A DNA stretch of 64,000 bases from Norana najaformis (taxonomy: Eukaryota; Annelida; Clitellata; Crassiclitellata; Hormogastridae). The stretch is from assembly GCA_964023275.1 (NCBI GenBank), contig OZ029915.1, forward strand, positions 13,460,712 to 13,524,711, given 5' to 3'. Under the pieces are notes generated by a model. The model had not been told where the DNA came from and did no database searches. It saw only the letters and a list, made by a program, of their open reading frames with translations. Below, piece after piece: positions 36,412-63,762 of the stretch; within the stretch, counting starts at the first letter, position 1; every line of letters starts with the position of its first letter. The position numbers and the translations under genes are program-made.

Positions 36412-36420
36412 ACTATTCCT

Positions 36421-37006
36421 ATACAACAGAACTTGAGACGGCATCAACGAGTGGACCGAATATTTGCTTTTTCTTAACAGGCTACTTAGTTGTGCTAAAC
36501 AGGAGTCTGAGCCCGATTGCTGAGAGAAAAATGCTTCAATATTTTGTCTTACAAGACCTTATACATCAGTTGTAACCTAGAATGTTACGCCTCATAAAAT
36601 CATCGCATTTTTAGAGATGTAGCTTAATTAATTGTTTTTTCATTATTTATTTCAACAAAAGCAAGCATTTTATTGAAATGTTACTAAACATTTCTATGCC
36701 ACTCTAAGTACCTCGAGCAGAAACTGTTCGCTGGTGTAAGTTCATCTATAATACTCACATAACTGGCATAGTCAGTATCGTACTCGTAATCGTGAACTCG
36801 AGATTTCTACAGCGCCGAAGGAAAGCTAAGTAGCAGGAACCAGCTTATTCACACTACTGGTGGGCGTTACGTAGAACCCATAGAACCCAATAAACGAAAT
36901 GCCATCTAGGAATGAAAATTGACACCATGTTCAAAGTTCCTCCTCTGTTCTCAGGATGAGAAATAACGACCTACACATGAAACCTAAATATGCTGATGAC
37001 GCCAGT
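36421..37006. repeat. Repeated 0.59-kb block, copy 2
   Basis: Near-identical partner of 23930-24515, starting directly after the broken transposase. It carries the same nested CGTAAT-type LINE piece (about 36785-36858). Confidence 0.9.
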
Positions 37007-40300: not shown

Positions 40301-43300
40301 TTTCCTGTCTTCAGCCAGCCGGTTTGAAGATCAACAAACTAGGCCTATAGTACCGACTGCCATAAACAATTCGTGCATTGAAACATCCTTCTGAAAAGAG
40401 TTTGATAAATATTTTGATTTGTATTAAGTCAGGCCTTTAAGAACTGTCCACTCTTCATTTCTCACATCCTTTAGCGTTACGTAAACAGGCAATGCAAGTA
40501 TCTGGATAGGCCCTATAAAATCCTGCACCACATAGGCCTACGCTCAAATAGCCTATGTTAGATATAATTATTTGTGATAGTAGGCTATATGCTATGTAGA
40601 AGTACCGTGTGACTTGATTCTATTTTGATTGTAATTGGGAGAAAAGATCACCAGTCGGCCTCAGTCATTGGATATAATGGATTTACCAAAATACTTCCTG
40701 ATGACCCGATTGACTCCAGTGTTAATATTAAATCACAACAAGACATTCGCTAGATGCGGTCAGTGCAATGAATACTCCTCCAAACACTCCCTAGATGGCG
40801 GAATTGTTCCTTAAAATCCTTTCTGTACACTCACTGGCCTTTGCAAGCTGTGGGTAGGCGTTCAGAAACTGCATGTTGTTAGTGAATACAGTGTAGACAT
40901 CGGGTGGCACGATGGAAGGCAACGAATGTTCTTGGTTATCATGCTGAGTTCGGGGTTTGAATCTAATTGGAAAAAAGGTCAGCGGTCTGCTTCAGTCGGT
41001 GGATATAATGGATTTTTATTTGTCTCTTAGGCTTACATGCAATGAAATTTCAGTAACATACCTAAAACACTTTTGAGTAGTATGTATGTATCATTAAATT
41101 TGTAAAGCGCCTTTTAAGTAACTCACAAAGGCGCTGCAGCACGGCTACCTAACGGTCTCTAAGTAAGAACGTCTTGAGACGGGCAGAAAATGTTTCTTGA
41201 ACTATTGAACAAACAAGGGTAATCGTAATCGTAATCCCAAGATTTCTACAGGGCCCAACGAAAGCCGCGGGGACCAGCTTATTCACAGGCGCTCAGTCAA
41301 AACAAAATCGATAGACAAAAGGGTTCGGTTCCGGGTCAAGATCCAAGAGTCAGGCAGAGAGAGACAGCTTGGCAGGGTCTGGTGGAAGAGTGTTCCAGAG
41401 AGACGCCCCCACAGTGGAGAAGGCGCGGTCCGCCCGAGCAGACGTACGAGAACGCGATACAATGAGATAACCATGTGTCGCCGATCGTAGTCTCTGTCGA
41501 CCAGGTTGATCAGCAACTGGCTTGATTAGCTCATTGATATAATCCGGCGCTGAGCCAACGATCGAGGACCTGATCATGAGGAATATTTTTGAACTGTACC
41601 CTCTTCTCGATTTGAAGCCAGTGTAGTAATTGATTACGTAGTGGAAAGTGCCCCAAGACGCACCCCCTTTTCTATTCTTGCTTGTAACTTTATTATCAGT
41701 ACCAATATGAAAACTATAAATGTGCATTTTATGTGGTCAAAGCATATGCACTGCCCCAGGGAACAAATTTTGCACTGTAACAGCTAAATGCTTCAATTTA
41801 TCTAAAACACTGGCCAACAGAAAATTTTTTTTTTCTTGTTGCCTTCGGTTTTAGACCTGTTCTTGGGGTAATTTTGGGCGCTGATTCAGAAAATGTCATT
41901 GGATTGAGTGCATCAGGTCTAGTTTCTGAGATATCGTCGATTTTGTAAAGAAAACCCAGTCCACTCTTTAAACGATGTCTTTGGCAAAACTAAAATGTCA
42001 TAATAAGCTTTATTTATGGCTAATTATAATTCTTGCTGATTCATATAATGCCTACATCCTTATAATGTAAAATCAGCATATCTTGCCGCGTGCTGAGATA
42101 TTGCTGATTCAACGAAATAACTATTCCGTAGCCTACAGCTTACTCAGCACTAAATTCATGGCCTCATTTAGAATTTATTTGTGCTTATACAGCGTTTCAT
42201 GGTTTCGAACTATGTAAATAGATTATGCTGAAGTCAGCATTTATAGCCTATATAAACCGCCTCCTGAAAGCTAGAGCAGCCGCAGTCGTCTTAGGGCATA
42301 TTAAGAGTTGGTCGCAAGAACAATCTGTGAATGTGAGCATTAAAAACCAACATCATGTTCTTACTATTTTTTAGGTTAGTCATTTAATTCCTCAGATGCG
42401 AACATCCTTAAGGTTATGGCTACTTCCAGACGGAGCTGCATTAACCATCCAGACATATTCTGCTACATTTGTGGGGAATACACACTAAAAGCAAACAGGA
42501 AACCGATTTCTGAGTTTGTAAAAAGAGCATATGTAGGTTATTTTGGTGTCAAACTTGGAGATCAAGATAAGCACTGGGCTCCTCATACAGTATGCAAAAC
42601 TTGTATTGAACAATTGCGCCACTGGACAATTGGAAAGAGAAGCTGCCTGAAATTTGGTGTACCGATGGTTTGGAGGGAACAGATAAACCACTTCGACGAC
42701 TGTTACTTTTGTATGGTTAATATCATAGGCATCAATCGAAATAATCGTCACAAGTTGTCTTACCCTGACATACCTTCAGCCAGGAGACCTGTTCCGCATT
42801 CGGATATTGTACCAGTTCCACCTTTTCGCGAACTACCTCAGCTCTCAGACGATGAGACTTGCATGTCCAATATCGGACAAGATGACGAAAGTGAAGAAAG
42901 TGGGGGCAGTGACAGTGATTTCCAATCAACTTCACACAGTGAACGTTTTGACCAAAAAGAGTTGAGTGATCTGATCAGGGACTTAAATCTTTCCAAAGAG
43001 TCCTCTGAATTGCTTGCGTCCAGACTAAAGGAAAAGAATGCACTTCAGCCTGGAACGAAAATTACAATTTATAGAAACAGAGAAAAGGATTTGCTGCCAT
43101 TCTTTACTGAAGACAACAACCTAGTATTCTGTAATGACATCAGCAACTTATTGAAGAAAATTGGTCTGTCGGATTACAGCCCAGATGAGTGGCGTCTTTT
43201 TATCGACAGTTCAAAACGTAGTCTGAAATGTGTGCTTTTAAATAACGGCAACAAATTTGGTTCTATTCCAATCGGTCACTCCACCAGGATGAAAGAAGAG

Positions 43301-46300
43301 TACAATGCCATCTCTTTAGTACTGGAAAAGATAAAATACAAAGAACATCAATGGGTAATTTGTGTAGACTTGAAGATGGTAAATTTCCTCCTTGGTCAAC
43401 AAAGTGGCTACACAAAGTATCCCTGCTTTTTGTGTCTTTGGGACAGTAGAGCCAAGCATGAACATTGGACAAGAAAAGATTGGCCTTCGAGGAAAGACAT
43501 GGTGGTTGGAGCTCAAAATGTAATCAAGGAATCTTTGGTGGCACGAGATAGGATCATACTGCCACCACTACATATAAAGCTAGGCCTGATGAAACAATTT
43601 GTCAGGGCTTTGAATAAAGAAGGTTCATGCTTCGAATACATAGTACACAAGTTACCAGGAATTACAATGGAAAAATTGAAGGCTGGAATCTTCGATGGTC
43701 CACAGATCAGGCAACTTATGAATGACCCACTTTTCATACCATCAATGAATGAAATCGAATCTTGTGCCTGGTCTTCCTTTGTTCTTGTAACTAAAAATTT
43801 TCTTGGCAACAAGAAGGCAGACAATTATGCACAACTAGTAGACGATATGCTTCTTCATTTCAACAAGCTTGGCTGCAACATGAGCATTAAAGTCCTTTAT
43901 CTCCACAGTCACTTAGATCGCTTTCCAGAGAATCTTGGTGACTTCAGCGAAGAGCAAGGTGAAAGATTTCACCAAGACATCAAAACAATGGAAAATCGAT
44001 ATCAAGGAAGATGGGATGCACACATGATGGCAGACTATTGCTGGAATATTATGCGCGATTGTTCCGGCAGATGCCACACTCGGAAATCGTACAAAAGGAG
44101 CTTCTTCGGTGTCGAATGACTTGAAATTTTTATAACAAACTTGTTCTGTTTGGTATCATATAAGTACAGTTTCAGGTACTACCATTTTCTTTTAAGTATT
44201 TGTATTATTATGTTTATTTAGTGTATCACATAATAAATTGTGCACTACATAATTATAGCTATAGCCTTATGTTTTATGGGCGAGCAGAGGCAAGGACTGG
44301 TATATGGCATAATGTTCTATATCTCGAAAACTAGACCTGCTGGGAGAAAACTGGTGCCTTTTCTGGAATCAGCAGGTCAAATATACGCAGAAACAGTTCT
44401 AACATTTGAGGCAACAAATTATGTGTTGGCCAGTGAAATCAGAGACAGGGTGATCTCAAGCTCTGGTTGCATCTTGGGAACACTTTTTCAGCACATCTAC
44501 ACTTTACTCACACGCTACCTTAACAGCATGCCTAGCATCGTTATATTGGCCCATATGGGTCCCATATCATCCCATAAGGGATCAATGTTTGTTCTTCCCG
44601 TTATGGGAGCACAAACACATAGAAGAACAGTACTAAAACATTGGTCATGACATATTCACTTTTAGACAATAATTTCAGAAGCTGTAATATAAAGAAAAAC
44701 TGTATTTGAAATAGATTGTCAAGCAACTATAGGCTATTAATGTCAAACTAACCTTACAGCACTGATGACAAACAAACTTGTCTTGAACAGCTTTTGATTT
44801 TCCAAGCATATCTGCACAAGTCATTTCAATCTACAGTCTACAGCGTTGGTACTGCAGCTTGTCATCTGTTGATTCCACGAATCTTTCTCCATATCCTGCA
44901 TAACAGTCCACAAGGTCGTCAAGTTCTGAGACTTTCTCTGTAAATTTCGATATACCAAAATCTTTTTCAGCACGGTGGTAAGACTGTCCATCCTTGAGTG
45001 CAGTTAATGCACGCTGGAGGTTTCCTCCCCATGCATATGATCCTCTGCTTGTCCTTCACTTGCAATCTTTTCCCATCTTCTATCAACAAATAGTAAGAAT
45101 CATCTCAAAGTAGTGACATTGGCCATTACTCAATAATTTTATTTTATCTAAAATATTTTTGTTTCGTTAATTGTCGATATTACATAGTCGCGTGCCCATA
45201 ACGTACCCAGTGCGTTTTGGGTGCCTACTTATTATCCATAAATTAGCTAAACTAGCCTCCTCCATTTAACCATTTACTTGTAGAATTGCTGGCCGTTTTA
45301 AGATTACACTAATTCTAGTGATTCTTAACTAATTCCTAACAAATTATGGCTAGTCAATTTGAGCTAAATCCAGTCAAGTAAGTATGTACAATGCAAATAC
45401 GAATTAAAAGGACGGAGCACTACATACACACTAAAGTTCATTTATTATGAATCACATTAGATGAAGCTAAAATATACACGGTCATAAAGTTGGTGAAACA
45501 GTTAACAGATAAAAAGATTTTTGCCAACCTTTGCATTTACATTGTAAAAACTCTTGTCAAATGATCACATGCGAAAGTTCAAAAATTAAGAAAACTTACT
45601 TTTGTTGCAAAAACCACGTTCCTCTCCGAAAAAAGAAACCAATTAATAATAACATAAGGACACGTGACTTATTGACTATGTTAGTAGGCTGCTGTGTTCC
45701 TGTATCACCAGTCAGAATATTATGATGGAGGTGCGTCTTGGACATACGGTGCATTTTGGGGGTACTTTTCCCTACTTCTTTTATTTTTCTGTAACATAAC
45801 TTCAGCTTATTTTAGTTGTTAGTCTATTTCGAAGCATAAATTTGTGAGCAAATCATGCGCAATTAGGCCTAAATTATGACTCCAGTTAAAGATTTAGCCA
45901 TAGTATCCAAAATTAACAGCAAATATAAAAAATAAGTGACTATGCATTCAGACTATTTATATTGGAGTTCTTCCACTCTTGCAGTTAAATCGTATGCGTC
46001 ACTTATTTGGTGAATTGTAGATATCTTGGCTCATAGTTTAGACGTCGAATCTGATCGAAAGTTAACAATTTCGATGGAAGAACAAGGTGAGATATTAAGG
46101 AATCAGACTATTTTTAGCATAATTTTTAAAGTACAAGTGAACAAGTGAGCTGTCTTTCTGAATCGTTGCCAAAATTAACGAATAAAGGCCACGTGTAAGG
46201 AGTATAACCTCTTTGGGCAGAACAGACTTGAAATTCACCACTGAATCCGTGATTTTCTGTCTGTTCGCAGATAGGCCTAACATTTCATTTTTGGATTCAT

Positions 46301-49300
46301 ATTGCCCTAGAGATAAGGGTCAACCAATTCTAAGAATACACTGAATTTGGTGAATTCCCAAACAATTATTTTAACTGAATAGGAGAGTTAAATATTTGTA
46401 AATTCACAATCATTTTTCTAATTAGACTAATTTATAATTAGACTGAAGGACTGGACTTCACGAAGTAGCCAAAAAACAGCAGAGACCAGTTCGTCTCGAT
46501 ACGCAAAAAGAGACTTTCTGTATCGATCACTGCAGGATGTTAGTTGGTAATAATTTGTATTGATTAAGTTTTAGCGATGGTCGCCATTGTTGGATGTACT
46601 CTTGCCATCTGCTTGGCCATTATTTGCATCGGAGCTGTATGTTTACGCAGGTATGTTAATCGTATAAACCTAGGCCTAAATTCAATTCTTAAGAATCGAA
46701 TTTATTTCTTGAAGAATAATTGACCTAAAGCCTATTAATAAAATAGGTTAAAACGTGCTTGTTGACTCGCTTTAGAAGTACTTTATAGCCCAACTACTTT
46801 CTGATGCTCACCCACTCTGATCCATCGAATCCACTGCCTTCCCATTTATTTTCAGCTTAAACACAACCAACTCTAACAGCTCCTCCCCTTCTCTCTCTGG
46901 TCTTCTGGCAAACGGTCTTGGTTTTTAACATGGCATTCTTTGACAACCCCACGACTTAACGCAACGCTCGTGAATAAGCTTTTAAGCAGCGCTTTTGAAA
47001 AATTTCGTGTTTATGCATACCTCTACAAGTAACTGCAAAGTTAGTATTAAATCACAACAAGACATTCGCTAGATGTACCCATATCAGAAAGTACTCTTCC
47101 AAACACTCCCTAGATGGCGGAAGTGTTCCTTAAAATTCTTTTCTGTACACAGGCTGGCGTTTGCAAGCTGTGGTAGGGCGTTCAGTAACTGCATGATAAT
47201 AGCAAATATAGCGTAGACATCGGGTGGCACGATGACAGGCAACGAATGTTTATAGTTTTCAGTCTAAGTTCGGGGTTTGAATCTAATTCATTGTCAAGCA
47301 ACGGTATATTGTCGGTGGGGGTTATATAATTTAGAGTAGAGTGTTTGTGACAAAAAGAGTGTAGACTGAGTAGAGTGATTTAGAGTAGTGTGTATGCAAA
47401 CGTGTTTATTCAGCGACAGCTAATCCTACATCGTTTCAGCTTCAGTGAATTTTACAGGTGAGAACCATCACCAACAATACACTACTTAGGTCCAAACGCA
47501 CATCGCAGTGTATCTATTATAGAGAATTGTCTGTGCTTATGGACCTAAATGGAGGAATGTGTAAAAAATGGTTATCTGATTACTTACATAATAGAAGGCA
47601 ATGTGTTTCATATAATGGGTACACTTCCTGTGAATTTTATCTTACCTGTGGTGTACCTGAAGGCTCTGTCTTAGGCCCACTACTGTTCTTAATAAACGTC
47701 AGTGATATATCGAACTCATGCTTCCTCATTACTCCATTTTATTCTGTTTGGGATGACACCAATGTATTCATGTCAGATAAATCTTTTGAATTGCTGGTTA
47801 ATAAAATTAATGTAGAGTTAAAAATGGTGGCGGCATGGTTCAAAGCAAATAAATTATCACTAAATATTAAGAAAACGAATTTCATATTATTTAGCTCACA
47901 GAGGAAAATTATACCTAAATGTAATCTCAGTATAAAAATTGATAACACTGGCCAACACATAATTTGTTGCCTCAAATGTTAGTACTGTTTCTGGGTATAT
48001 TTGACTTGCTGATTCCAGAAAAGGCACCAGTTTTCTCCCAGCAGGTCTAGTTTTCGAGATATAGAACATTATGCCATATACCAGTCCTTGCCTCTGCTCG
48101 CCCATAAAACATAAGGCTATAGCTATAATTATGTAGTGCTCAATTTATTATGTGATACACTAAATAAACATAATAATACAAATACTTAAAAGAAAATGGT
48201 AGTACCTGAAACTGTACTTATATGATACCAAACAGAACAAGTTTGTTATAAAAATTTCAAGTCATTCGACACAGAAGAAGCTCCTTTTGTATGATTTCCG
48301 AGTGTGGCATCTGCCGGAACAATCGCGCATAATATTCCAGCAATAGTCTGCCATCATGTGTGCATCCCATCTTCCTTGATATCGATTTTCCATTGTTTTG
48401 ATGTCTTGGTGAAATCTTTCACCTTGCTCTTCGCTGAAGTCACCAAGATTCTCTGGAAAGCGATCTAAGTGACTGTGGAGATAAAGGACTTTAATGCTCA
48501 TGTTGCAGCCAAGCTTGTTGAAATGAAGAAGCATATCGTCTACTAGTTGTGCATAATTGTCTGCCTTCTTGTTGCCAAGAAAATTTTTAGTTACAAGAAC
48601 AAAGGAAGACCAGGCACAAGATTCGATTTCATTCATTGATGGTATGAAAAGTGGGTCATTCATAAGTTGCCTGATCTGTGGACCATCGAAGATTCCAGCC
48701 TTCAATTTTTCCATTGTAATTCCTGGTAACTTGTGTACTATGTATTCGAAGCATGAACCTTCTTTATTCAAAGCCCTGACAAATTGTTTCATCAGGCCTA
48801 GCTTTATATGTAGTGGTGGCAGTATGATCCTATCTCGTGCCACCAAAGATTCCTTGATTACATTTTGAGCTCCAACCACCATGTCTTTCCTCGAAGGCCA
48901 ATCTTTTCTTGTCCAATGTTCATGCTTGGCTCTACTGTCCCAAAGACACAAAAAGCAGGGATACTTTGTGTAGCCACTTTGTTGACCAAGGAGGAAATTT
49001 ACCATCTTCAAGTCTACACAAATTACCCATTGATGTTCTTTGTATTTTATCTTTTCCAGTACTAAAGAGATGGCATTGTACTCTTCTTTCATCCTGGTGG
49101 AGTGACCGATTGGAATAGAACCAAATTTGTTGCCGTTATTTAAAAGCACACATTTCAGACTACGTTTTGAACTGTCGATAAAAAGACGCCACTCATCTGG
49201 GCTGTAATCCGACAGACCAATTTTCTTCAATAAGTTGCTGATGTCATTACAGAATACTAGGTTGTTGTCTTCAGTAAAGAATGGCAGCAAATCCTTTTCT

Positions 49301-51474
49301 CTGTTTCTATAAATTGTAATTTTCGTTCCAGGCTGAAGTGCATTCTTTTCCTTTAGTCTGGACGCAAGCAATTCAGAGGACTCTTTGGAAAGATTTAAGT
49401 CCCTGATCAGATCACTCAACTCTTTTTGGTCAAAACGTTCACTGTGTGAAGTTGATTGGAAATCACTGTCACTGCCCCCACTTTCTTCACTTTCGTCATC
49501 TTGTCCGATATTGGACATGCAAGTGTCATCGTCTGAGAGCTGAGGTAGTTCGCGAAAAGGTGGAACTGGTACAATATCCGAATGCGGAACAGGTCTCCTG
49601 GCTGAAGGTATGTCAGGGTAAGACAACTTGTGACGATTATTTCGATTGATGCCTATGATATTAACCATACAAAAGTAACAGTCGTCGAAGTGGTTTATCT
49701 GTTCCCTCCAAACCATCGGTACACCAAATTTCAGGCAGCTTCTCTTTCCAATTGTCCAGTGGCGCAATTGTTCAATACAAGTTTTGCATACTGTATGAGG
49801 AGCCCAGTGCTTATCTTGATCTCCAAGTTTGACACCAAAATAACCTACATATGCTCTTTTTACAAACTCAGAAATCGGTTTCCTGTTTGCTTTTAGTGTG
49901 TATTCCCCACAAATGTAGCAGAATATGTCTGGATGGTTAATGCAGCTCCGTCTGGAAGTAGCCATAACCTTAAGGATGTTCGCATCTGAGGAATTAAATG
50001 ACTAACCTAAAAAATAGTAAGAACATGATGTTGGTTTTTAATGCTCACATTCACAGATTGTTCTTGCGACCAACTCTTAATATGCCCTAAGACGACTGCG
50101 GCTGCTCTAGCTTTCAGGAGGCGGTTTATATAGGCTATAAATGCTGACTTCAGCATAATCTATTTACATAGTTCGAAACCATGAAACGCTGTATAAGCAC
50201 AAATAAATTCTAAATGAGGCCATGAATTTAGTGCTGAGTAAGCTGTAGGCTACGGAATAGTTATTTCGTTGAATCAGCAATATCTCAGCACGCGGCAAGA
50301 TATGCTGATTTTACATTATAAGGATGTAGGCATTATATGAATCAGCAAGAATTATAATTAGCCATAAATAAAGCTTATTATGACATTTTAGTTTTGCCAA
50401 AGACATCGTTTAAAGAGTGGACTGGGTTTTCTTTACAAAATCGACGATATCTCAGAAACTAGACCTGATGCACTCAATCCAATGACATTTTCTGAATCAG
50501 CGCCCAAAATTACCCCAAGAACAGGTCTAAAACCGAAGGCAACAAGAAAAAAAATTTTTCTGTTGGCCAGTGTAATGTAAATATAAATCAGGTGTCAGCC
50601 ACAAAATTTCTAGGAGTTCACATTGACGAACATTTGACTTGGAAAGAACACACAAATATCATATCTAAAAAAATATTTTAAAAATATTGGTATTATCTCT
50701 CGTATCCGCCACAAATTACCCACAAATATATTATTGAACCTATATTACTCCTTCATATATCCATATATCTCGTATTGCAACATTGTTTGGGCTTCCACAT
50801 ATCATACTCGCCTGTGTAATCTTAGAACCCTACAGAATCGCATCATCAGAATTATATTTAATCTACCCCTCAGAACCAGCACTCGATTGTCCTTTCACAG
50901 TCTAGGAATATTGCCTTTTGATTGTATTAACAAGTTGCAAATAGGTTTATTTATATTTAAACTAAAAAATAATCTATTACCTGTGGACTTCTACCAATAC
51001 TTTTGTATGAATTCAGATGTGCATGGTCATTATACGCGCTCATCTCATATGTATCATAAACATTCTGTTTGCACTACTAATAGACAGTTTAGTATTATCA
51101 TTTGTGGACCGTCATTCTGGAATTCTCTGCCAACTGTTCTTACTAACTTGCCAACTTTATACCAGTTCAAAACAAGTCTAAAATCCCATATACACAATGC
51201 ACTTAGTTAAGTATTGTTTGGTGCTTAGTTAAGTTTTTGTTTGTGTTTATGAAATGACATTGATTATATTTATTACTTTATATCTTAGATTATCAATTGT
51301 TTTACTCAGTATCATGCTGTCACCTATTTGTAATCCATGATGTTAATAGGTGACCTTCGTAGCGGAACTGTTTGTTCCTTTTAGGTCAGCCCATTGGCAC
51401 CACTGTATGTGAAAGACTATTATTGTATTTGTTAATTATTTTGGTTGTCAATAAATCTGTCTCTCTCTTTCTCT

Positions 51475-51554
<80 letters not shown>

Positions 51555-53162: not shown

Positions 53163-53400
53163 AATTCTTTTCCAGAAATCTTATCCTGATTCTTCCTCTT
53201 CCTCTTATCTCTCTTCTCGCTTCAATTTCAAACATCATCCACCGTAGCCGTCCGACTGTCTGAGTGCCTGACTCCCGGATCTTGACCCTTTTGCCTATCG
53301 ATTTTGTTTTGACTGAGCGCCTGTGAATAAGCTGGTTCCCGCAACTTAGCTTTCGTTGAGCGCTGTAGAAATCTCGAGATTACGATTACGATTACGATTC
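53163..53400 (+). mobile_element. LINE 3'-end fragment with (CGATTA)n tail
   Basis: Phrases GACTCCCGGATCTTGACCC, TTTTGACTGAGCGCCTGTGA, ATAAGCTGGTTCCCGC and GCGCTGTAGAAATCTCGAG lead into (ATTACG)n. The same 3' end occurs at 41219-41640 and 59836-60076. Confidence 0.85.
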
Positions 53401-53631
53401 AGTCGCTCGTTTTGAGACGATCCCTGGCCTCCATATGCAAAACTTTTCCTATAAATTATCTAGCTACAGCGTTTTCTTAGCAGATTAATACGCTAAATTA
53501 TTCCTTAGATTGAATACGAAAACGCTTGAGAGAAAATAATCCTCGATAGAGGAGGCATAGTATTATTACGGAGCAAATTTAAGCTAATATTTTATGACGT
53601 TAAACTTAACGTAGATTTGTCAGTAGCTAAA

Positions 53632-53713
53632 ATGCTTCAACTAATTATTCAGATTGCGATTGTGTTGATGATTGTGAGTTTAATTCAATCAGATCTTGTG
53701 GAAAAGGAGCCAG
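53632..53713 (+). CDS. Gene C exon 1: signal peptide
   Basis: ATG opens MLQLIIQIAIVLMIVSLIQS then DLVEKEP, and the exon ends in phase 1 at GTAGGC. A strong signal peptide, the best first exon among the three lectin genes. Confidence 0.8.
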
Positions 53714-56700
53714 GTAGGCGTCCCTTTAGACGTACTTGTATCTAGAGCTAGTTCATGAAACCTGTTGTGTACAGAACTATTCTAAAAGTCATTTCAGACA
53801 GCTTCATAACCCTGAATTGTCATAAAACATGCATAATATTAACTCAGAACGATTTGTATCTAGACATTAACAGTAATATAGAACGCATTAGTTCATTCTA
53901 CAGATGGAAAGATACTTATTTTACTTCAGAGTCTTTAAGAAAATTAGGTCTATTGTGAGCGAATAGTAGGTATAAGAGTTAAACATGTGCGCACATTGTT
54001 GATGACATTTGCTATGTCAAATTGGTTACATTATTATTATTATTTCTGCATTTAGTAGGCGCCATTATCTAATGACTTAGCATAAATCGATGGCTCCGAG
54101 CAGTTGTGAGTTAAGGACTTGCTCAAGGTCCCTACACAGTAACCGTCTCGGAGGAGGCTCGAACCCGTACTCTCCGCGTTACAAGCCGAACGCTCTATCC
54201 AATATGCTACCGTGCCCCACATATGCTACCGTGCCCCACATATAGATGCATAAAATTAAATATAACAACATATTTATAATACATTAATTTTACATATAGA
54301 TATATAATTAAATTTCACAAAGATCAACACTCACAGTTAGCCCAGGTCTACATTTGCAATAGGCTTTTGTACATTAATTTGTACATTACCAACACAACAG
54401 TGGGACGCGGTGGTGTAGTGGTATGGTCGTTGCCTCGTAACCGGAAGGTCGCGGGTTCGAATCTGCCTTAAGCCACTGCGTAGCGACCTTGGACAAGTTG
54501 CTCACCCGCAATAGTCTGTGAGGAAGGCAACGGGAAACCACCTCACTCGTCTCATCCCCGGATGGCATAAAGCCAATGGACCTGCCTTCGGGCAGAAAAC
54601 TCATCATCATCATCATCATCATCAACACAACAACGAAGAAAATTAAATGAGGTTATAATGTCCTGCTTATTTATGCCAAGTTTTGAAAATAAAATAATGC
54701 AAATAATTCGTAATCGAAATCGTAATCTCGAGATTGCTACAGCGCCTAACGAAAGCCACGTCACGGGGACCAGCTTATTTCACAGGCGCTCAATCAAAAC
54801 AAAATCGATAGGCAAAATGGGTTCTGTTCCAGGTCAAGATCCAAATGTCAGGCAGAGAGACAGCGTGACGTGACGTTTTAGATTGGAGCGGAAAGAGAGA
54901 TAACAAGAGGAAGAGGAGCCAGGATACGATCTGTGAAAGAGGAATGTTTTCAGGTTTATGTAGTAGTTGTTAAATGGCGCCGCTCCAACAGAAACTAATC
55001 AGTGGCGCTCTTTACTCTAACCTAAACGATATTGGATGTAATCAGGAATCAGTATCCATAAGTTAGCAAACAATGCGCAGATAACTAGAAACGTCACCAG
55101 TGGTAGGCTCCCTCACACATGCAGAACGGAGCCAACTGATTTCCATCCAAAGTGAACTCATTTGATAGCTGATAGCATGTTCAGAACTCCGCATTGGATC
55201 GAGGATGAACAACGACAGACGATGTGATCCGCCGACAGTGACACACGGTTCCATCATCGTCCAGCAAATTCCTAATAGAGGGTAGATGACGCAGCGTCCA
55301 AACGTCTCTTGAGCTAGCACGTCATTGCAGGTCAGGAATTCGATTCGTGACAGGACCTCTACTTGCAGTTGATGCCCCTCAAAAGACACTTCTCGTCCTT
55401 CTTTAACCGAAGCTAATATTTTCTTTATTGGCGACAGAATAAGGCTCAGCTGTCCTCTCACCCCTTAATGGCAGATTGCTCCAATGACGGTTGATCAATG
55501 ATCCAATTGATCGATGGAACAAAACACTCAAAATCGAAAAAAAATAATGAAGAATAAAAGTTCGAACAAACGAGAATCATCGAACAAATTTTGAGCAAAA
55601 CGAAGAAACTGTCCAACGACAATTAGCCTAAGGTAAACATGGTCTGTTTAGCTGCAGACATGCACCGCAAAAGCCCATCAAGTCTATGGCATTAATTAAC
55701 TCAGATGCAACTGAATTATATCTAGCGTTTAGCTTCCTAACAGCCGATTATAAAAGGCAAGTTATTTATCTGTTAAGCGCCTTTGTCATAAGATGCATAG
55801 TTCAAAAGTGTTGAAGAATGACTACAGAATCAATTTCCAGCTACCGCGATTCAAATCACAGCTAACAAGCAAATGCCACACGTGCGCAGCCTACCAAAGA
55901 TAATACGAGTAGGCGATCATGATGTTCTACGGTACTGAATACAGCTTTGTCATATTCCTAAAATATTTTGCTGGCTATGTCATCTCTATTCGCCAGCAAA
56001 CGATTCGTTTACTGTTAAACTTTAGACTCGTCATCCAAAGACTACTGCTTCACGGAATCGTTTCACGCACGATGTATGACGAATGAAGCAGTTCTTATGA
56101 CAGCTGCCATCTATGGACGAATGCGCATTGGCAGATGTGTCAAGGAAGACGAAATGAGGGCACTCGGACTACTGGTTGGAGAAGATCCACGCTACATCGG
56201 ATGTTCTGCAAATGTCTTGTCCATACTCGATCGAAAATGTTCTGGAAAGACTGAATGCGAAATTCGTGTTTACGAGATTTCGGACGAGAACATCCATCCT
56301 TGCTTTCCTGGTCTGAAAATGTATCTCGTAGCCAGTTACAGCTGCATCAGTAGTACGTTTTATTGTATATGATAAAAACCTATTTACACACATATTTAGA
56401 ATTACTCTAATAACTGGATCTAACAGAATTATTCCAATGACTTCTGTAGTGTCATTAAGATATCCTTAGAGTGGAAGTTCTATGTGATTGGTGAAGATAC
56501 TTTGCTTTCTTACAGTTGAGTCATAGTAAAACTGTACACAGCAGATTAATAACAATATTACTTGCAAATCATACGGCTGGCAATTTATAAACTTTTGATT
56601 TACTAAGAACTTGATATTTAATTAAGCGTTTTATGACTGGTTTTATCGCAGTCTACGACGTTACCAGTCGTAAAACACTTTTTACCAGCAGAAATGCAAA

Positions 56701-59700
56701 TGGTGCGGCAAAAGATCTGATAAGTTTTTATTCTGAAATTGTATAAATGAGGAATAACTGTATGAAATTATGGATTTGTTTACGTGATGCAATTGTAAAT
56801 AGTTGTAGACGAACAGCGTTCGTGTGCCTTGATTGCTTCTAAATATCCGATTCACATCATCGGTTCACTAACGTCGCAGAGTATTTGTGGAACAAAATCT
56901 CAGCCGTGGATTGTCGAGGCGCCTGTTGGTCAGCGAATCAACGTCAGCTTGATCGGATTCACAGCTTCAGTTGATGATCAAGGACACAGCAGGCATTCAT
57001 GCCATGATCGTGGAATGATTGTGGAAAGGACTGGGAAGAAAAATACATCGATCTGCTTGGGTGGAGAACAGAGAGAGAAGAGGATACATTTGTCAACGAG
57101 TAACGTAGTCCACATTTTCATCCATTCACCATATACCAAGGAAAGCTTCAAGGATGGAAAGCAATTTATACTCAAAATTGAAGGTCTCTTGGCCTATTTA
57201 TGTCAATGCCCTCTACTATTGACTTCTGAATTTCATATTGAACTAATAATTAGCCATAAATAAGCTGTGAAAATTTTCGTTTAATGCATACTTGGCAGAA
57301 CTCCAACGATGGACCACGTGTTGCTATTAAACGAGGTTGATTTTCTTCTAAAGAAACGAACGCTTCTCCACATTTGTGATCGTGCATGAGAAAACAGCAG
57401 AAAGTCTGAAAAGTAAATTTGCAAGAAACTCGCCCAGAAGACAAGTAGGCATAGAATGGATCAAAATAAGTTCTTTACATCTTAATATTCCTTATTGTCA
57501 GCTATCAAACTATAAATTCTTGTGCAGAGTTTCGCTGCACAAGTAATTTTATTTCAACTTTATTATTATGCCCTGCAGCAAAAACAATAAGCATTTCCTC
57601 CGGTGTCCTAATTTGAAGTCGTGTACATCGATATTATGCAAATGAACAATTTAATAAATATTTTTCTTAATCAGTTTTTAGTGAATATTTGATTTTCAGA
57701 GGCGCATGAATACGCTCCAATTTACAATTCTCATAGACATTCATGATCCCTATGTATACACACAGCGACTTAGGTCGGGTCACAGTTAAGGCAAACTAAC
57801 TCGTGGTTTCTCAAAAGTATCTGCAAAGACAAAACTATGATAGCAATAAACTTTGATCCTTGTGAAATCTCATGCGACCTTGTGTATTGTATGATGTATT
57901 AGAATATAAATTAAGTTTGTAGTGCCTAAGACATTGAAACCTCGCTATATGTTTTCCTGTATATATAGACAGATACATACATACATATATACATATCGCT
58001 TACTTTTTGAAACGATTAAAAGAATTAAGAAATCATACTAATGGCAAATCATGCTAATTGACTCTAAATTTGGACATAAATTAATGCAAGTATAGACGAT
58101 TTTGTTTAATGTGCTACAACTTTTAAAATTGAATAGTTCTTTGCTACATCATCACATTTTGCCTAGACTATGAAAATGAATCCGCTAACACTTAATACCC
58201 ATGAATGCCTTTTGGAGTGAAGATGGTCATCATCATGCGTTGATTAGAACCGGGTCTATTCTCTTTTAGCTGTCGGCTGCTCTGATATCATTCCACCAGA
58301 AGACACGTGGCTGAAAAGAAACAATGATGCTGTTGTGATTGAATGCTATTCAAGTCGCAAAACATGGCGTCTCAATTGTAATGGCGGAAAGTGGATCGGT
58401 GTGCTAGGAAACTGTTCGCAAGGTATTGATCTCCTATATCAGAAATATGTATAGCAATTACTTCTTTTGAGGCTGTAGTTTGTCCATTGCAAGCTACCAC
58501 TAGGCCCCGACATAAAACAATTTTAATGTGCTCGTCTGAGAACAAATAAGAAGATTTTAAATTTTTCAATTCTTCATCATTATAGTATGTCATTTAAACG
58601 ACTGAAAATGCAAGTGAAAGAAGTAACTCTTCCTCAAAAATTATTTGTTTCCCCGTCTTCTTTATTCTGTTTTTTTTCCAAAAGGCTCATTCAGATCGCA
58701 TTTGTGCGTAATGTTGCGTTGGTGTAATAAACAACTTTAAGACCCTCTGCATTATGCGTGTCTTAAATGCAACCATCCTTTTCACTTGTCTACTTCAGCG
58801 CCGGCGCCAGATGAGGTAGGGAGCTCTTAGCTCACTCCTACCAACAGCGCTGGTTGAGTTAATCTTCTCATCTCCTAACAATCAACGTGCTTTGGGCTTC
58901 ATTACTAAAAGACTTATTTGAAGTTTTGGACCCAGTTATCACATGCACTGTCAAGGCACAATTTTCAGAATTTCAAATTTTGAATTCACAATAGCGCTAT
59001 CAGCTACATGGACATAGGAGAAATAACTGCTCTTATTCTACTTGATCTTTCGGCCGCTGTTGATACTGTCGACCATGATAAGCTCCTTCACCACCTCGAA
59101 CACTGCTTTGGCCTTTCTGGTCCTGCACTCAACTGGTTTGCGTCTTACTTTGTTTGATGTCTTTCAGTTGGGTGAATTTAATAATGATCGTTCCGAATGT
59201 GCATGCCATTTAGGAATAACATTTGACCCACAATGATTTTATTCTGTCCATGCTAAAACCGTTTTCAAATCAGTTCACTTTCATATACGGCATATTCGGA
59301 GATTCAGATCTTACATTCCTCTCGCTGTCTTGGTTTCACTAACAACTACTCTGGTTGTTTGCCGACTCGACTGCTGCAACTCACTTTTCATTGGTATTGC
59401 TAAAAGAGATTTTCGCAAACTACAAATGGTTCAAACTTCTCTGGCGGCTTCAGAATCATTTGCTAAAAATACTGCAGACAAGGTTTCTCCTACAAAATCT
59501 GCAATTCTGTATTTTTTTCAGATTTGATCACTGATTTTCAGATTTGTCCCTACATTCGTAAAAATTACTTGCAATATGATGTTTCGATTTTCTTCTGGAA
59601 TGAAATTAAACCTGTTGTTCTAAGTTGATCAGATTTACTTTAAATCACTGGTGGCTGCGGCCGTGGCTTCGCCTCGGACTCTGCTGGACACCTTACGGAA

Positions 59701-62700
59701 GGCCATAGCTGCCCACCTCTCTGGTATAAACCCCCACCAGAATTACGACAATTATCTGACCCATCATGCGAACTCACCAACACTTCACCCCTTACAATTT
59801 CTGCTCACGTCTTTCTCTCAAAACTAAAAAACTCCTCTTCCACAATTCCTACCCTGATTCGTCCTCTTCTCCTTATCTCACTTTCCGGTTCGGTTCCAAA
59901 CACCACCCGCTATAGCCGTCTGACTGTCTGCCTGCCTGACTCCTGGATCTTGGTCTGGAACCGAACCCTTTCTGCCTATTGATTTTTTTACTGAGCGCCT
60001 GTGATTAAGCTGATTCCCGCGAATTGGCTTTCGTTGGAGGCTGTAGAAATCTCTAGCTTACGATTACGATTACGGTCCGCTTAATTGGGAACTCCTCATA
60101 ATTTTGTTGCAACAAATTCTCCTGTATGCTATAAACCCGTAAGGTCTAAATAGCAGTAAAATGTGCAAAATGTCTTCACAACTTGTAGTGCACACAGGAC
60201 CCCTTAGCATCCTTGCAAAATTTATACCAAGATTTTTCATATTGACACCGTCGCATTCCCGTGCTTGGTCAGTATGCCATTTCATTCTGGATTGTTTCAT
60301 CGCGTTTTCATCTGTTTCTTCTGTTGATTTGCTAATTTAAAAAGATAATCGTTTTCAAAAAAGGTGAAGTATTCGACTATATTTTCACTGCAACCTTAGA
60401 CTTACTTTCGTTGTTTTTCAGATTTTCTCAAAGTTGATCAAGGCATAGAATCTGAAGTGAAATCAGAACTATCGGACAGTGGGCAAGGTATTCAGTTTGT
60501 CATAGCAATTCACGCTGTCACTAAAATATTTTATTGTGCAGGAAAATTTAAATAATTGAGAATCTTTCACGTAACATTTATTGAATAATTATTTGGCACT
60601 CTTAAATTGGTCATAATTATGAATTTATTAAGCGCCACGATCTCAAGACAGAGCATGAATCGATGGCGCTAAGCAACTGCGCGTGAAGAACTTGTTCGAG
60701 GCCCCTACACAGTGAACGTCTCAAGGAAGGTTCGAACCTCACACTCCACATATATAAGGCGAGCGCTCAAACCAATCGGCTACCGTGTCACATAGTAGCT
60801 CGTTAAGTATAAGCTAACAGAGCCATTCCAACTTCCATCTACAATTTTACGGTTGATTTATTAGCTGCTGCTTTCAGGACAATAACACTGGCCAACAGAA
60901 AAATTTTTTTTCTTGTTGCCTTCGGTTTTAGACCTGTTCTTGGGGTAATTTTGGGCGCTGATTCAGAAAATGTCATTGGATTGAGTGCTTCAGGTCTAGT
61001 TTCTGAGATATCGTCGATTTTGTAAAGAAAACCCAGTCCACTCTTTAAACGATGTCTTTGGCAAAACTAAAATGTCATAATAAGCTTTATTTATGGCTAA
61101 TTATAATTCTTGCTGATTCATATAATGCCTACATCCTTATAATGTAAAATCAGCATATCTTGCCGCGTGCTGAGATATTGCTGATTCAACGAAATAACTA
61201 TTCTGTAGCCTACAGCTTACTCAGCACTAAATTCATGGCCTCATTTAGAATTTATTTGTGCTTATACAGCGTTTCATGGTTTCGAACTATGTAAATAGAT
61301 TATGCTGAAGTCAGCATTTATAGCCTATATAAACCGCCTCCTGAAAGCTAGAGCAGCCGCAGTCGTCTTAGGGCATATTAAGAGTTGGTCGCAAGAACAA
61401 TCTGTGAATGTGAGCATTAAAAACCAACATCATGTTCTTACTATTTTTTAGGTTAGTCATTTAATTCCTCAGATGCGAACATCCTTAAGGTTATGGCTAC
61501 TTCCAGACGGAGCTGCATTAACCATCCAGACATATTCTGCTACATTTGTGGGGAATACACACTAAAAGCAAACAGGAAACCGATTTCTGAGTTTGTAAAA
61601 AGAGCATATGTAGGTTATTTTGGTGTCAAACTTGGAGATCAAGATAAGCAATGGGCTCCTCATACAGTATGCAAAACTTGTATTGAACAATTGCGCCACT
61701 GGACAATTGGAAAGAGAAGCTGCCTGAAATTTGGTGTACCGATGGTTTGGAGGGAACAGATAAACCACTTCGACGACTGTTACTTTTGTATGGTTAATAT
61801 CATAGGCATCAATCGAAATAATCGTCACAAGTTGTCTTACCCTGATATACCTTCAGCCAGGAGACCTGTTCCGCATTCGGATATTGTACCAGTTCCACCT
61901 TTTCGCGAACTACCTCAGCTCTCAGACGATGAGACTTGCATGTCCAATATCGGACAAGATGACGAAAGTGAAGAAAGTGGGGGCAGTGACAGTGATTTCC
62001 AATCAACTTCACACAGTGAACGTTTTGACCAAAAAGAGTTGAGTGATCTGATCAGGGACTTAAATCTTTCCAAAGAGTCCTCTGAATTGCTTGCGTCCAG
62101 ACTAAAGGAAAAGAATGCACTTCAGCCTGGAACGAAAATTACAATTTATAGAAACAGAGAAAAGGATTTGCTGCCATTCTTTACTGAAGACAACAACCTA
62201 GTATTCTGTAATGACATCAGCAACTTATTGAAGAAAATTGGTCTGTCGGATTACAGCCCAGATGAGTGGCGTCTTTTTATCGACAGTTCAAAACGTAGTC
62301 TGAAATGTGTGCTTTTAAATAACGGCAACAAATTTGGTTCTATTCCAATCGGTCACTCCACCAGGATGAAAGAAGAGTACAATGCCATCTCTTTAGTACT
62401 GGAAAAGATAAAATACAAAGAACATCAATGGGTAATTTGTGTAGACTTGAAGATGGTAAATTTCCTCCTTGGTCAACAAAGTGGCTACACAAAGTATCCC
62501 TGCTTTTTGTGTCTTTGGGACAGTAGAGCCAAGCATGAACATTGGACAAGAAAAGATTGGCCTTCGAGGAAAGACATGGTGGTTGGAGCTCAAAATGTAA
62601 TCAAGGAATCTTTGGTGGCACGAGATAGGATCATACTGCCACCACTACATATAAAGCTAGGCCTGATGAAACAATTTGTCAGGGCTTTGAATAAAGAAGG

Positions 62701-63762
62701 TTCATGCTTCGAATACATAGTACACAAGTTACCAGGAATTACAATGGAAAAATTGAAGGCTGGAATCTTCGATGGTCCACAGATCAGGCAACTTATGAAT
62801 GACCCACTTTTCATACCATCAATGAATGAAATCGAATCTTGTGCCTGGTCTTCCTTTGTTCTTGTAACTAAAAATTTTCTTGGCAACAAGAAGGCAGACA
62901 ATTATGCACAACTAGTAGACGATATGCTTCTTCATTTCAACAAGCTTGGCTGCAACATGAGCATTAAAGTCCTTTATCTCCACAGTCACTTAGATCGCTT
63001 TCCAGAGAATCTTGGTGACTTCAGCGAAGAGCAAGGTGAAAGATTTCACCAAGACATCAAAACAATGGAAAATCGATATCAAGGAAGATGGGATGCACAC
63101 ATGATGGCAGACTATTGCTGGAATATTATGCGCGATTGTTCCGGCAGATGCCACACTCGGAAATCATACAAAAGGAGCTTCTTCGGTGTCGAATGACTTG
63201 AAATTTTTATAACAAACTTGTTCTGTTTGGTATCATATAAGTACAGTTTCAGGTACTACCATTTTCTTTTAAGTATTTGTATTATTATGTTTATTTAGTG
63301 TATCACATAATAAATTGTGCACTACATAATTATAGCTATAGCCTTATGTTTTATGGGCGAGCAGAGGCAAGGACTGGTATATGGCATAATGTTCTATATC
63401 TCGAAAACTAGACCTGCTGGGAGAAAACTGGTGCCTTTTCTGGAATCAGCAGGTCAAATATATCCAGAAACAGTTCTAACATTTGAGGCAACAAATTATG
63501 TGTTGGCCAGTGTAATTTATTTATTCATAACACGCTTTTGTGAGGCCTATAAGCAGCGCTAGAAAAATGTAAGGATACACTTATTCGAAAAGCCTACAAA
63601 TTTATGCATCCAAAGCCTTCTTCTCAACGCGCCGCCGATAGTGAAATGAATAATTAGCTCTTTTGATTATTTGATCTTAGTTCTTGCAATTGTGGCGATT
63701 TGCGGATTTACTGCGGCAATATGTCTGATAATCATGTGCATTGGAGCGATTTGTCAACGACG
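53632..63762 (+). CDS. Gene C: SUEL lectin/CUB-like/sushi-like membrane receptor, 3' partial
   Basis: Exons are 53632-53713, 56026-56352, 56803-57183, 58270-58422, 60422-60487 and 63681-63762, giving a signal peptide, SUEL lectin, CUB-like domain, sushi-like module, stalk and transmembrane helix. The tail exon should lie beyond the window. All junctions agree in phase (1-1, then 1-2 at the helix). Intron 1 is loaded with SINEs and a LINE end, and the intron before the transmembrane exon holds transposon copy 3. As with A and B, the protein should sit in the plasma membrane with a glycan-binding head. Domain spacing is closest to gene B. Confidence 0.88.
54030..54239 (-). mobile_element. tRNA-derived SINE, family 2, copy 1
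   Basis: On the minus strand: a GGGGCACGGTAGCATATTGG head with an A-box-like TAGCATATTGG, then a B box GGTTCGAGCC (54156-54165), a body, and an AAT-rich tail (TTATTATTATT at about 54030). Its 5' end is duplicated: ATATGCTACCGTGCCCCAC occurs twice in tandem (54202-54239). It lies in gene C intron 1. Confidence 0.75.
54400..54622 (+). mobile_element. tRNA-derived SINE, family 1, with perfect target duplication
   Basis: Head with A box TGGTGTAGTGG (54411-54421) and B box GGTTCGAATC (54454-54463), a body with GGAAGGCAACGGGAAACCAC, and a (CAT)n tail. The flanks CAACACAACA at 54390-54399 and 54623-54632 are identical 10-bp target duplications, which fix both ends. The internal promoter boxes are intact. 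It is a SINE, not a tRNA gene: there is no acceptor stem. Confidence 0.92.
54703..54930 (-). mobile_element. LINE 3'-end fragment (CGTAAT-tailed family)
   Basis: Begins CGTAATCG(A)AATCGTAATCT then GAGATTGCTACAGCGCC and continues CACGGGGACCAGCTTATTTC, TCCAGGTCAAGATCC and GGCAGAGAGACAGCGTG. Confidence 0.85.
55063..55461 (-). pseudogene. Remnant 3 of the unrecognised minus-strand family (132-codon open frame)
   Basis: The minus-strand frame reads VSFEGHQLQVEVLSRIEFLT then CNDVLAQETFGRCVIYPLLG and ends SYLRIVC. It shares DNA phrases with 34561-34990 (GTTCTGAACATG) and 30600-30960 (TGTCG(G/T)(C/T)TGTTG and CAATGCGG). No signal peptide or membrane segment is attached. Coding status is uncertain: it may be a repeat fragment in gene C intron 1. 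Confidence 0.4.
56026..56352 (+). CDS. Gene C exon 2: SUEL-type lectin domain
   Basis: Acceptor AACTTTAG, donor GTACGT; 327 nt, phase 1 to 1. Shows YCFTESFHARC, AAIYGRMRIGRC (Ile for Thr before YGR), GEDPRYIGCSANVL, LDRKCSGKTECEIRV and ASYSCIS. Confidence 0.93.
56803..57183 (+). CDS. Gene C exon 3: CUB-like domain
   Basis: Acceptor GTAAATAG, donor GTCTCT (weak, but placed by homology); 381 nt, phase 1 to 1. Shows RSCALIASKYPIHII, ICGTKSQPWIVEAPVGQRI, SICLGGEQREKR and FILKIEG. Confidence 0.85.
57184..58269. other. Gene C intron 3
   Basis: AT-rich, with a (CATA)n run near 57970-57990. No exon or recognisable repeat family. Confidence 0.6.
58270..58422 (+). CDS. Gene C exon 4: sushi-like Cys module
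   Basis: Acceptor CTCTTTTAG, donor GTATTG; 153 nt, phase 1 to 1. Reads VGCSDIIPPEDTWLKRNND, IECYSSRKTWRLNC and GKWIGVLGNCSQ. Confidence 0.87.
59008..60076 (+). mobile_element. CR1-like LINE, degenerate, with CGATTA tail
   Basis: Reverse-transcriptase piece LILLDLSAAVDTVDHDKLLH...LSGPALNWFASYFV near 59025-59157, then LVVCRLDCCNSLFIGIAKRD and FRKLQMVQ near 59345-59435, then the family 3' end (GACTCCTGGATCTTGG, GAGCGCCTGTGATTAAGCTG) to (TTACGA)n at 60056-60076. Heavily deleted and shifted, so inactive. Confidence 0.85.
60422..60487 (+). CDS. Gene C exon 5: stalk
   Basis: Acceptor GTTTTTCAG, donor GTATTC; 66 nt, phase 1 to 1, reading FLKVDQGIESEVKSELSDSG then Q. Matches the gene A stalk at IESEVK and the -Q-G junction. 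Confidence 0.78.
60620..60795 (-). mobile_element. tRNA-derived SINE, family 2, copy 2
   Basis: Same family as 54030-54239: minus-strand head with ACACGGTAGCCGATTGG, a B box GGTTCGAACC and the body phrase GTAGGGG...CAAG...TTCACGCG. Diverged from copy 1 throughout. Confidence 0.7.
60886..63512 (+). mobile_element. Cut-and-paste DNA transposon, copy 3 (2627 bp)
   Basis: Ends CACTGGCCAACAG...TGTTGGCCAGTG, flanked by TAA on both sides. Almost identical to copy 1; differences are scattered single bases such as GTGC(A/T)TCAGG, TATTC(C/T)GTAG and AATATA(C/T)(G/C)CAG. It lies in the gene C intron between the stalk and transmembrane exons. Confidence 0.95.
61493..63196 (+). CDS. Transposase, 567 residues, intact (copy 3)
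   Basis: Same protein as copy 1 except Gln for His at residue 53 (DKQWAPH), inside the N-terminal Cys domain near C60. If that His helps hold zinc, this copy could bind DNA less well; the core residues D264, D318, C337, C340 and E516 are unchanged. The ORF is uninterrupted. Confidence 0.9.
   Translation: MATSRRSCINHPDIFCYICGEYTLKANRKPISEFVKRAYVGYFGVKLGDQDKQWAPHTVCKTCIEQLRHWTIGKRSCLKFGVPMVWREQINHFDDCYFCMVNIIGINRNNRHKLSYPDIPSARRPVPHSDIVPVPPFRELPQLSDDETCMSNIGQDDESEESGGSDSDFQSTSHSERFDQKELSDLIRDLNLSKESSELLASRLKEKNALQPGTKITIYRNREKDLLPFFTEDNNLVFCNDISNLLKKIGLSDYSPDEWRLFIDSSKRSLKCVLLNNGNKFGSIPIGHSTRMKEEYNAISLVLEKIKYKEHQWVICVDLKMVNFLLGQQSGYTKYPCFLCLWDSRAKHEHWTRKDWPSRKDMVVGAQNVIKESLVARDRIILPPLHIKLGLMKQFVRALNKEGSCFEYIVHKLPGITMEKLKAGIFDGPQIRQLMNDPLFIPSMNEIESCAWSSFVLVTKNFLGNKKADNYAQLVDDMLLHFNKLGCNMSIKVLYLHSHLDRFPENLGDFSEEQGERFHQDIKTMENRYQGRWDAHMMADYCWNIMRDCSGRCHTRKSYKRSFFGVE
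63681..63762 (+). CDS. Gene C exon 6: transmembrane helix
   Basis: Acceptor TGATCTTAG, donor GTACGT; 82 nt, phase 1 in and 2 out. Reads LAIVAICGFTAAICLIIMCI then GAICQRR. No tail exon is seen before the window ends. Confidence 0.88.

What the first reader, a model, noticed from the sequence alone, without database searches (positions are those of the whole stretch)
41808..63512. Young 2.63-kb transposon family with 3-bp target duplications and a RAG1-like CxxC spacing
Seen: three copies with identical termini (CACTGGCCAACA), AAA/TAA/TAA 3-bp flanking duplications and an intact 567-residue ORF differing by at most a few residues. Known: RAG1, Transib and CMC enzymes use a DDE core, and RAG1 places zinc Cys 19 and 22 residues after its second Asp. 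Here C337 and C340 lie exactly 19 and 22 after D318. The gap between the two Asp (54) is half that of RAG1 (108). Inference: a CMC/Chapaev-like or otherwise uncatalogued relative of the RAG/Transib lineage with a ZAD-like DNA-binding head.
Basis: partly seen in the sequence, partly recalled or inferred. Interest (0 to 1): 0.75.

Follow-up and report, generated by a model that had tools for sequence, protein, structure and literature searches.

The report
Young Chapaev3 transposon burst with scars
The three repeats are copies of a recently multiplied jumping gene of a known animal kind (Chapaev3, a distant cousin of the RAG1 recombinase), and some of its relatives in the same genome have lost one end and carry a short extra copy of the neighbouring DNA, a scar that hints at how such elements are cut and repaired.

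Summary
In detail: three 2.63-kb copies, 99.6% identical, perfect 12-bp ends, duplications AAA/TAA/TAA, one open 567-codon frame. It fits the published Chapaev3 description (CMC group): CAC..GTG ends, TWA duplications between A and T, C(2)C, LH and, in the family, H(4)H. It is not an uncatalogued lineage; the 'RAG1-like' CxxC is a trait of the whole CMC/Transib clade. The 608-Mb host genome holds about 1,300-1,400 copies from a star-like burst. The window copies are a local mutant subfamily: residue 494, His in at least 1,372 of 1,395 tagged copies, is Leu in all three. I read them as scars of one-end cutting repaired by microhomology joining with copying of the empty site; one-ended insertion is the main rival. 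Structure prediction failed; the RNase H fold is unconfirmed.

The parts
41808..44435 (+). transposon copy A, 2628 bp, TIR CACTGGCCAACA
41805..41807 (.). target duplication AAA (left) of copy A; preceded by A
44436..44438 (.). target duplication AAA (right) of copy A; followed by T
42416..44119 (+). transposase frame of copy A, 567 aa, one exon
   Evidence: 49% identity over 564 columns to L072
42461..42715 (+). N-terminal zinc-binding-like region, residues 16-100: C16, C19, C60, C63, C96, C99 kept in the sister family; weak zf-AD match
43205..43207 (+). D264, first catalytic Asp candidate (RLFID), kept in fossil and sister family
43367..43369 (+). D318, second catalytic Asp candidate, kept in fossil and sister family
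43424..43435 (+). C(2)C motif, C337-F-L-C340
43568..43573 (+). LH motif, L385-H386 (LPPLHIKLGL)
43895..43912 (+). H(4)H position, residues 494-499: Leu494..His499 in the window copies, His494 in at least 1,372 of 1,395 tagged copies
43952..43963 (+). E513 and E516, candidates for the third acid (EEQGERFHQDI), invariant in 62 proteins read
41880..42110 (+). three subterminal GCTGATTC motifs (41880, 42035, 42103), direct orientation
44366..44373 (-). subterminal GCTGATTC motif near the 3' end, inverted orientation
47946..50572 (-). transposon copy B, 2627 bp, TAA duplications at 47943-47945 and 50573-50575, inside a LINE
48262..49965 (-). transposase frame of copy B
60886..63512 (+). transposon copy C, 2627 bp, TAA duplications at 60883-60885 and 63513-63515
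61493..63196 (+). transposase frame of copy C
5626..5919 (-). paralogous empty site of copy B in an uninterrupted LINE copy, single TAA
35627..36396 (+). decayed piece of a second, older family of the same kind (29-42% identity, frame change and stop)

Best explanation
A cut-and-paste DNA transposon of the Chapaev3 group (CMC). The 567-aa protein is the transposase: its N-terminal zinc-binding-like region, perhaps with the subterminal GCTGATTC repeats as sites, recognises the ends, and a DDE core with a C(2)C/H(4)H zinc insert cuts next to CAC/GTG and joins the ends to targets of the form A|TWA|T with a 3-bp stagger. Shown: ends, duplications, target preference, empty sites, motifs, a star-like burst of about 1,300-1,400 copies. 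Inferred: catalytic roles, end binding, zinc binding. The window copies descend from one mutant copy without the first His of H(4)H, so they were probably multiplied in trans or before that change. In about a quarter of the sampled copies the process went wrong: I infer that one end was cut, eroded by 24-258 bp, the freed flank was extended across the empty-site sequence (7-56 bp in most), and the two were joined at short microhomology, leaving a one-ended copy between direct repeats. The structure of these copies is shown; the mechanism is inferred (about 0.6 against 0.3 for one-ended insertion). The confidence below is for the Chapaev3 reading.
For: Ends, duplications and frames. Of 46 copies scored as full length, 37 have identical flanking 3-mers; 27 of the 37 are TTA or TAA and 31 of 37 have A before and T after. 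Published Chapaev3 traits: (PMC4079192). H(4)H in 56 of 62 proteins read and at least 1,372 of 1,395 tags. Sister family 49% identical over its length; one of its two fetched copies starts CACTGGTCAACA after A|TTA. Empty sites for copy B, for L062 and for truncated L057. Star-like divergence: mean pairwise 0.49%, 1.90 times the mean distance to the majority sequence. Scars: 16 of 63 copies lack one end, 12 of the 16 with abutting repeats of 7-56 bp; mismatched-flank control 0 of 272; one more with 8 bp outside the sample, L080; rebuilt target A..T in 10 of 13; microhomology of 1-5 bp in 13 of 13 junctions against 28 of 72 control pairs, 2 bp or more in 8 of 13 against 7 of 72; nine 5' losses of at most 258 bp although 608 bp precede the frame; in L053 a 28-bp copy of the right flank lies between two element pieces.
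Against: No Chapaev3 reference sequence was available, so there is no tree or profile match; Pfam gave only sub-threshold matches, and the PDB, virus, phage, plasmid and bacterial/archaeal searches found no relative. The window copies themselves fail H(4)H. A..T flanks are 31 of 37 here, while the paper says always. Structure models are unusable. 4 of the 16 one-ended copies have repeats of only 0-3 bp by the measure used (L016, L053, L058, L068), and 9 of 46 full-length copies lack matching 3-bp flanks. One copy first scored as one-ended (L049) proved to be a full copy interrupted by about 2.2 kb; L058 and L068 could be of that kind. The scars do not by themselves separate repair in place from one-ended insertion.
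Confidence: 0.88

Rival explanations
1. For the scars, one-ended insertion: an excised element with one eroded end is joined by the transposase at its intact end only; the host breaks the other target strand 7-56 bp away and joins it to the eroded end, giving a long, variable target duplication, as in LINE insertion.
For: All 16 one-ended copies keep the other end, and the intact end sits at the family's target motif in 10 of the 13 that can be rebuilt. Single-ended transposition is reported for piggyBac (PMC3952818, passages read) and one-ended transposition is proposed for Dada (PMC3706591, passage read).
Against: A random second break should give deletions as well as duplications. Full-length copies with 4-8-bp repeats, three of them with one extra base beside one end (L012, L028, L033, L045, L054, read by eye), and L053 with a flank copy inside the element form a continuum that repair in place explains more simply.
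Confidence: 0.3
2. PIF/Harbinger element: 3-bp TWA duplications and a DDE transposase with a separate Myb-like protein (traits recalled).
For: 3-bp TWA duplication.
Against: Ends are CAC..GTG, there is one long frame only, no Pfam transposase match, and C(2)C, LH and H(4)H are traits stated for Chapaev/CMC.
Confidence: 0.02
3. A new branch of the RAG1/Transib lineage outside the known Chapaev groups.
For: C(2)C 19 and 22 residues after D318, as recalled for RAG1.
Against: 5-bp duplications are typical of Transib; here they are 3 bp at A|TWA|T. The motif is shared by the whole CMCT clade. No similarity to any PDB chain by sequence.
Confidence: 0.05

Closest known systems
Chapaev3 transposons (Merrow, Garfield, Conan; PMC4079192, passages read)
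   Same: CAC..GTG ends, TWA duplication between A and T, transposase of similar size (Garfield_BM 556 aa in 2,289 bp), C(2)C, LH, H(4)H, animal hosts
   Different: one exon, as stated for most Chapaev3 but not Merrow and Garfield; sequence identity to them could not be measured here; window copies lack the first His of H(4)H
Chapaev (sensu stricto), EnSpm/CACTA, Mirage (CMC)
   Same: CA..TG ends, C(2)C and H(3-4)H
   Different: other duplication lengths and targets (partly recalled); A|TWA|T is reported for Chapaev3
Transib / RAG1
   Same: C(2)C and H(3-4)H in the DDE core
   Different: 5-bp duplications; 108 residues between the two Asp in RAG1 (recalled) against 54 here
Repair-mediated duplication of proximal DNA (PMC2671141, abstract and outline seen)
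   Same: short copies of neighbouring DNA at break sites, attributed to synthesis-dependent strand annealing
   Different: here the duplicated piece starts at the transposon's target duplication and sits beside a lost transposon end

Membership tests
[quoted passage not shown]
   1,318 exact 5' tags and 1,313 exact 3' tags in the genome
Chapaev3 | 3-bp TWA duplication flanked by A and T | tested here: met
   46 copies scored full length: 37 identical 3-mers, 27 of 37 TWA, 31 of 37 A..T; preference, not absolute
Chapaev3 | C(2)C motif after the second Asp | tested here: met
   C337/C340 in 62 of 62 proteins read and in the fossil
Chapaev3 | LH motif | tested here: met
   LPPLHIKLGL, kept in the sister family
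Chapaev3 | H(4)H motif | tested here: met
   met by the family: 56 of 62 proteins, at least 1,372 of 1,395 tags, both sister proteins; not met by the three window copies (Leu494)
Chapaev3 | N-terminal Chapa zinc domain | tested here: inconclusive
   six N-terminal Cys kept between two families; no Chapa profile available; zf-AD below cut-off
Chapaev3 | placement in a tree with Repbase Chapaev3 transposases | not testable with these tools
   no reference sequences held; four peptide words from or near the protein occur in no held paper
Chapaev3 | RNase H fold with D264, D318 and E513 or E516 together | tested here: inconclusive
   mean pLDDT 30.9 and 37.7
Transib/RAG1 | 5-bp target duplication | tested here: not met
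   3 bp
PIF/Harbinger | transposase domain of that superfamily and second, Myb-like protein (recalled) | tested here: not met
   no Pfam transposase match, one long frame only

The most novel reading that the evidence does not exclude
Single-end cutting by a Chapaev3 transposase is frequent in the germ line, and its repair against the empty allele turns about a quarter of young copies into immobile one-ended copies flanked by 7-56-bp duplications: a self-limiting by-product and a readable record of asymmetric cleavage in the relatives of RAG1.
Probability: 0.4. Interest if true: 0.55.

Novelty: new member of a known kind. Interest (0 to 1): 0.38.

Why it matters
As a transposon it is an ordinary new family of Chapaev3, though a very young one with more than a thousand near-identical copies and a second family with open frames in the same genome, so it is a good candidate for an active animal CMC transposase, of which few are characterised (my knowledge). 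The one-ended copies with long abutting repeats give a sample of failed events from which the order of end cutting and the repair route could be read; that would help with the mechanism of the clade that gave rise to RAG1.

Tried and rejected
Relatives elsewhere: tblastn against phages and plasmids and motif scans of viral and bacterial/archaeal contigs found none; three viral contigs that hold a degenerate motif showed no significant match to the protein. PDB sequence searches with the protein, its N-terminus and two profiles gave nothing. ZAD head: below Pfam's cut-off and not listed for the sister proteins. AlphaFold2 with window proteins only was unusable; no fold search was run on such models. 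The strand and helix order around D264 and D318 would fit an RNase H fold, but pLDDT is under 50 and it is not counted. A possible mutation hot spot at residue 494 (three different replacements in 6 of 62 proteins) was dropped after the genome count showed only 23 of 1,395 tags without the common codon; the control count for a neighbouring codon did not complete. L049, first counted as one-ended, proved to be a full copy interrupted by about 2.2 kb and was taken out, so 17 became 16. An empty-site search for L025 did not complete. Papers: one-ended transposition and gap repair were searched; among the listed papers (titles and abstract starts, plus passages of three) I saw no description of long abutting duplications at truncated cut-and-paste copies, but the listings were capped (20 of 290, 15 of 70) and most subscription journals are not held.

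Full report
Observation. The three copies, their ends, duplications and frames are as described. They differ at 9-10 alignment columns pairwise. The termini are a perfect 12-bp inverted repeat. In each copy the duplication is preceded by A and followed by T. Copy B interrupts a LINE; its joined flanks match an uninterrupted LINE copy in the same window (5626-5919, minus strand) over 296 columns with 284 identities and one TAA, so the 3-bp duplication arose on insertion.

Host and copy number. The window lies in a 608-Mb genome held as 17 contigs and unnamed; that it is an animal is my inference from the LINEs and from the hosts reported for Chapaev3. The genome has 1,318 exact 5'-end tags, 1,313 exact 3'-end tags (reversed controls 0) and 1,395 tags of the C-terminal coding part. 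Among the 46 copies scored as full length, mean pairwise difference is 0.49% (5' untranslated part 0.84%, coding part 0.29%, 3' part 0.63%), 1.90 to 1.99 times the mean distance from the majority sequence: a recent, star-like burst. The coding figure is biased low because the copies were the best protein matches.

What it is. PMC4079192 (passages read) gives for Chapaev3: CAC/GTG ends, 3-bp TWA duplication always between A and T, motifs C(2)C, LH and H(4)H, a 556-aa example, mostly one exon. The sample here is 63 copies (60 fetched plus the window's three, of the 77 listed; 14 were not fetched). Of the 46 scored as full length, 37 have identical flanking 3-mers; 27 of the 37 are TTA or TAA and 31 of 37 have A before and T after. 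C337/C340 and LPPLH are present. H(4)H is absent from the window copies, which read VLYLHSH, but 56 of 62 proteins read have His at 494, and the exact tag with the common His codon is found 1,372 times of 1,395. The window copies also share E476D and a block of changes in the 5' untranslated part, so they are a local subfamily from one mutant copy. Whether its transposase works is unknown; if not, the copies were moved by others.

Relatives. A decayed piece in the window at 35627-36396 (29-42% identity) belongs to an older family; the search with it listed 150 scored matches, about the first hundred of them its own decayed kin, the rest a second family with frames of up to 578 codons at 45-46% identity. 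Two fetched members of that second family (L072, L073) are 49% identical to the window protein over 564 columns and keep both Asp, C(2)C, LH, E513, E516 and H(4)H; L072 starts with CACTGGTCAACA after A|TTA. Nothing related was found among the viral, phage, plasmid and bacterial/archaeal collections, as expected of an animal element; those scans work by exact peptide words or tblastn and reach close relatives only.

The RAG1 link. [quoted passage not shown] The 19/22 spacing is therefore best read as a clade trait. PMC4411706 (section read) states that a Chapa zinc domain, also found in the RAG1 N-terminus, is present in Chapaev3; I could not test this. The third acid may be E513 (E-x-G, as in my recalled RAG1 E962-S-G) or E516; both are invariant in 62 proteins. 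AlphaFold2 without a deep alignment gave mean pLDDT 30.9 and 37.7, so the fold test remains open.

End recognition. GCTGATTC occurs three times within 303 bp of the 5' end and once, inverted, 62 bp from the 3' end; TGCTGATTC has 9 matches in the window, all inside the three copies, against 0.83 expected. I infer transposase binding sites.

One-ended copies. One search scored 17 of 63 copies as lacking one end. One, L049, was then found to be a full copy interrupted by about 2.2 kb (element columns 1-194, insert, columns 184-2628), which leaves 16 of 63. Losses are 24-258 bp; the nine 5' losses are at most 258 bp although 608 bp precede the frame. Direct repeats that abut both junctions measure 0 (L058), 1 (L068), 2 (L053), 3 (L016), 7, 8, 10, 13, 18, 24, 25, 29, 29, 40, 47 and 56 bp, so 12 of 16 are 7 bp or more. 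Of 272 mismatched flank pairs none reaches 7 (largest 4); of 46 full-length copies one does, in a trinucleotide run, and of 2,070 mismatched pairs from full-length copies three do (largest 10). In the 13 with repeats of 3 bp or more the site before the event reads A|NNN|T in 10, the outer base lying beyond the repeat. These junctions show 1-5 bp of microhomology in 13 of 13, against 28 of 72 mismatched pairs; 2 bp or more in 8 of 13 against 7 of 72. L057 (25-bp repeat) has a paralogous empty site on another contig, 197 of 220 columns identical, that holds the segment once with one mismatch. L053 lacks its outermost 5' bases, then has a short element piece, a 28-bp copy of the right flank, and the element from column 139 (read). 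Outside the sample, of two unpaired ends fetched, L080 lacks 20 bp and has an 8-bp abutting repeat, and L079 is nearly full length. On contig C1, 24 of 99 exact 5' tags and 25 of 100 exact 3' tags have no partner within 6 kb; this is an upper estimate because only exact tags were paired.

Mechanism of the scars. In each of the 12 one side reads as the restored empty site followed by the eroded element. I favour cutting at one end in place, erosion of the freed element end, extension of the freed flank along the empty allele (or across the other target duplication) and microhomology joining. Full-length copies with 4-8-bp repeats, some with one extra base beside one end (L012, L028, L033, L045, L054; read by eye), would be the mild form. 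One-ended insertion of an eroded element explains the same structure. The data do not decide; haplotypes would.

Verdict. The scars are the part worth following.

Noticed in passing
L010, L025, L026, L027, L031, L037, L046, L047, L055, L057, L059, L064 (and L080): One-ended copies flanked by 7-56-bp direct repeats that abut both junctions; microhomology of 1-5 bp in the twelve measured.
   Followed up: partly
window 35627-36396: Decayed piece of an older family of the same kind, many copies in the genome.
   Followed up: partly
L072, L073: Second family with open frames (49% identical protein; TIR CACTGGTCAACA in L072) in the same genome; the two loci diverge close to the end of the frame, so at least one may be 3'-truncated.
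   Followed up: partly
genome contig C1:4020208-4029869 (L074-L078): Four 5' ends in the same orientation 2.3-2.4 kb apart with one exact 3' end; a 17-bp piece of the left flank recurs before the second copy, beside non-element DNA that is itself repeated.
   Followed up: partly
window 42416-44119, 48262-49965, 61493-63196: All three window transposases have Leu instead of His at residue 494 of the H(4)H motif; at least 1,372 of 1,395 tagged copies have His.
   Followed up: yes
window 5137-6596 and 47458-51210: Two copies of a LINE with reverse-transcriptase-like frames; the second is split by copy B.
   Followed up: yes
window 23895-24515 and 36393-37006: A 621-column repeat, 96% identical, that begins where the decayed transposon piece ends.
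   Followed up: no
L049 with L082 (genome contig C1:47272900-47278600): A full copy of the transposon interrupted at columns 184-194 by about 2.2 kb of other DNA, with 11 bp of the element repeated on both sides.
   Followed up: partly
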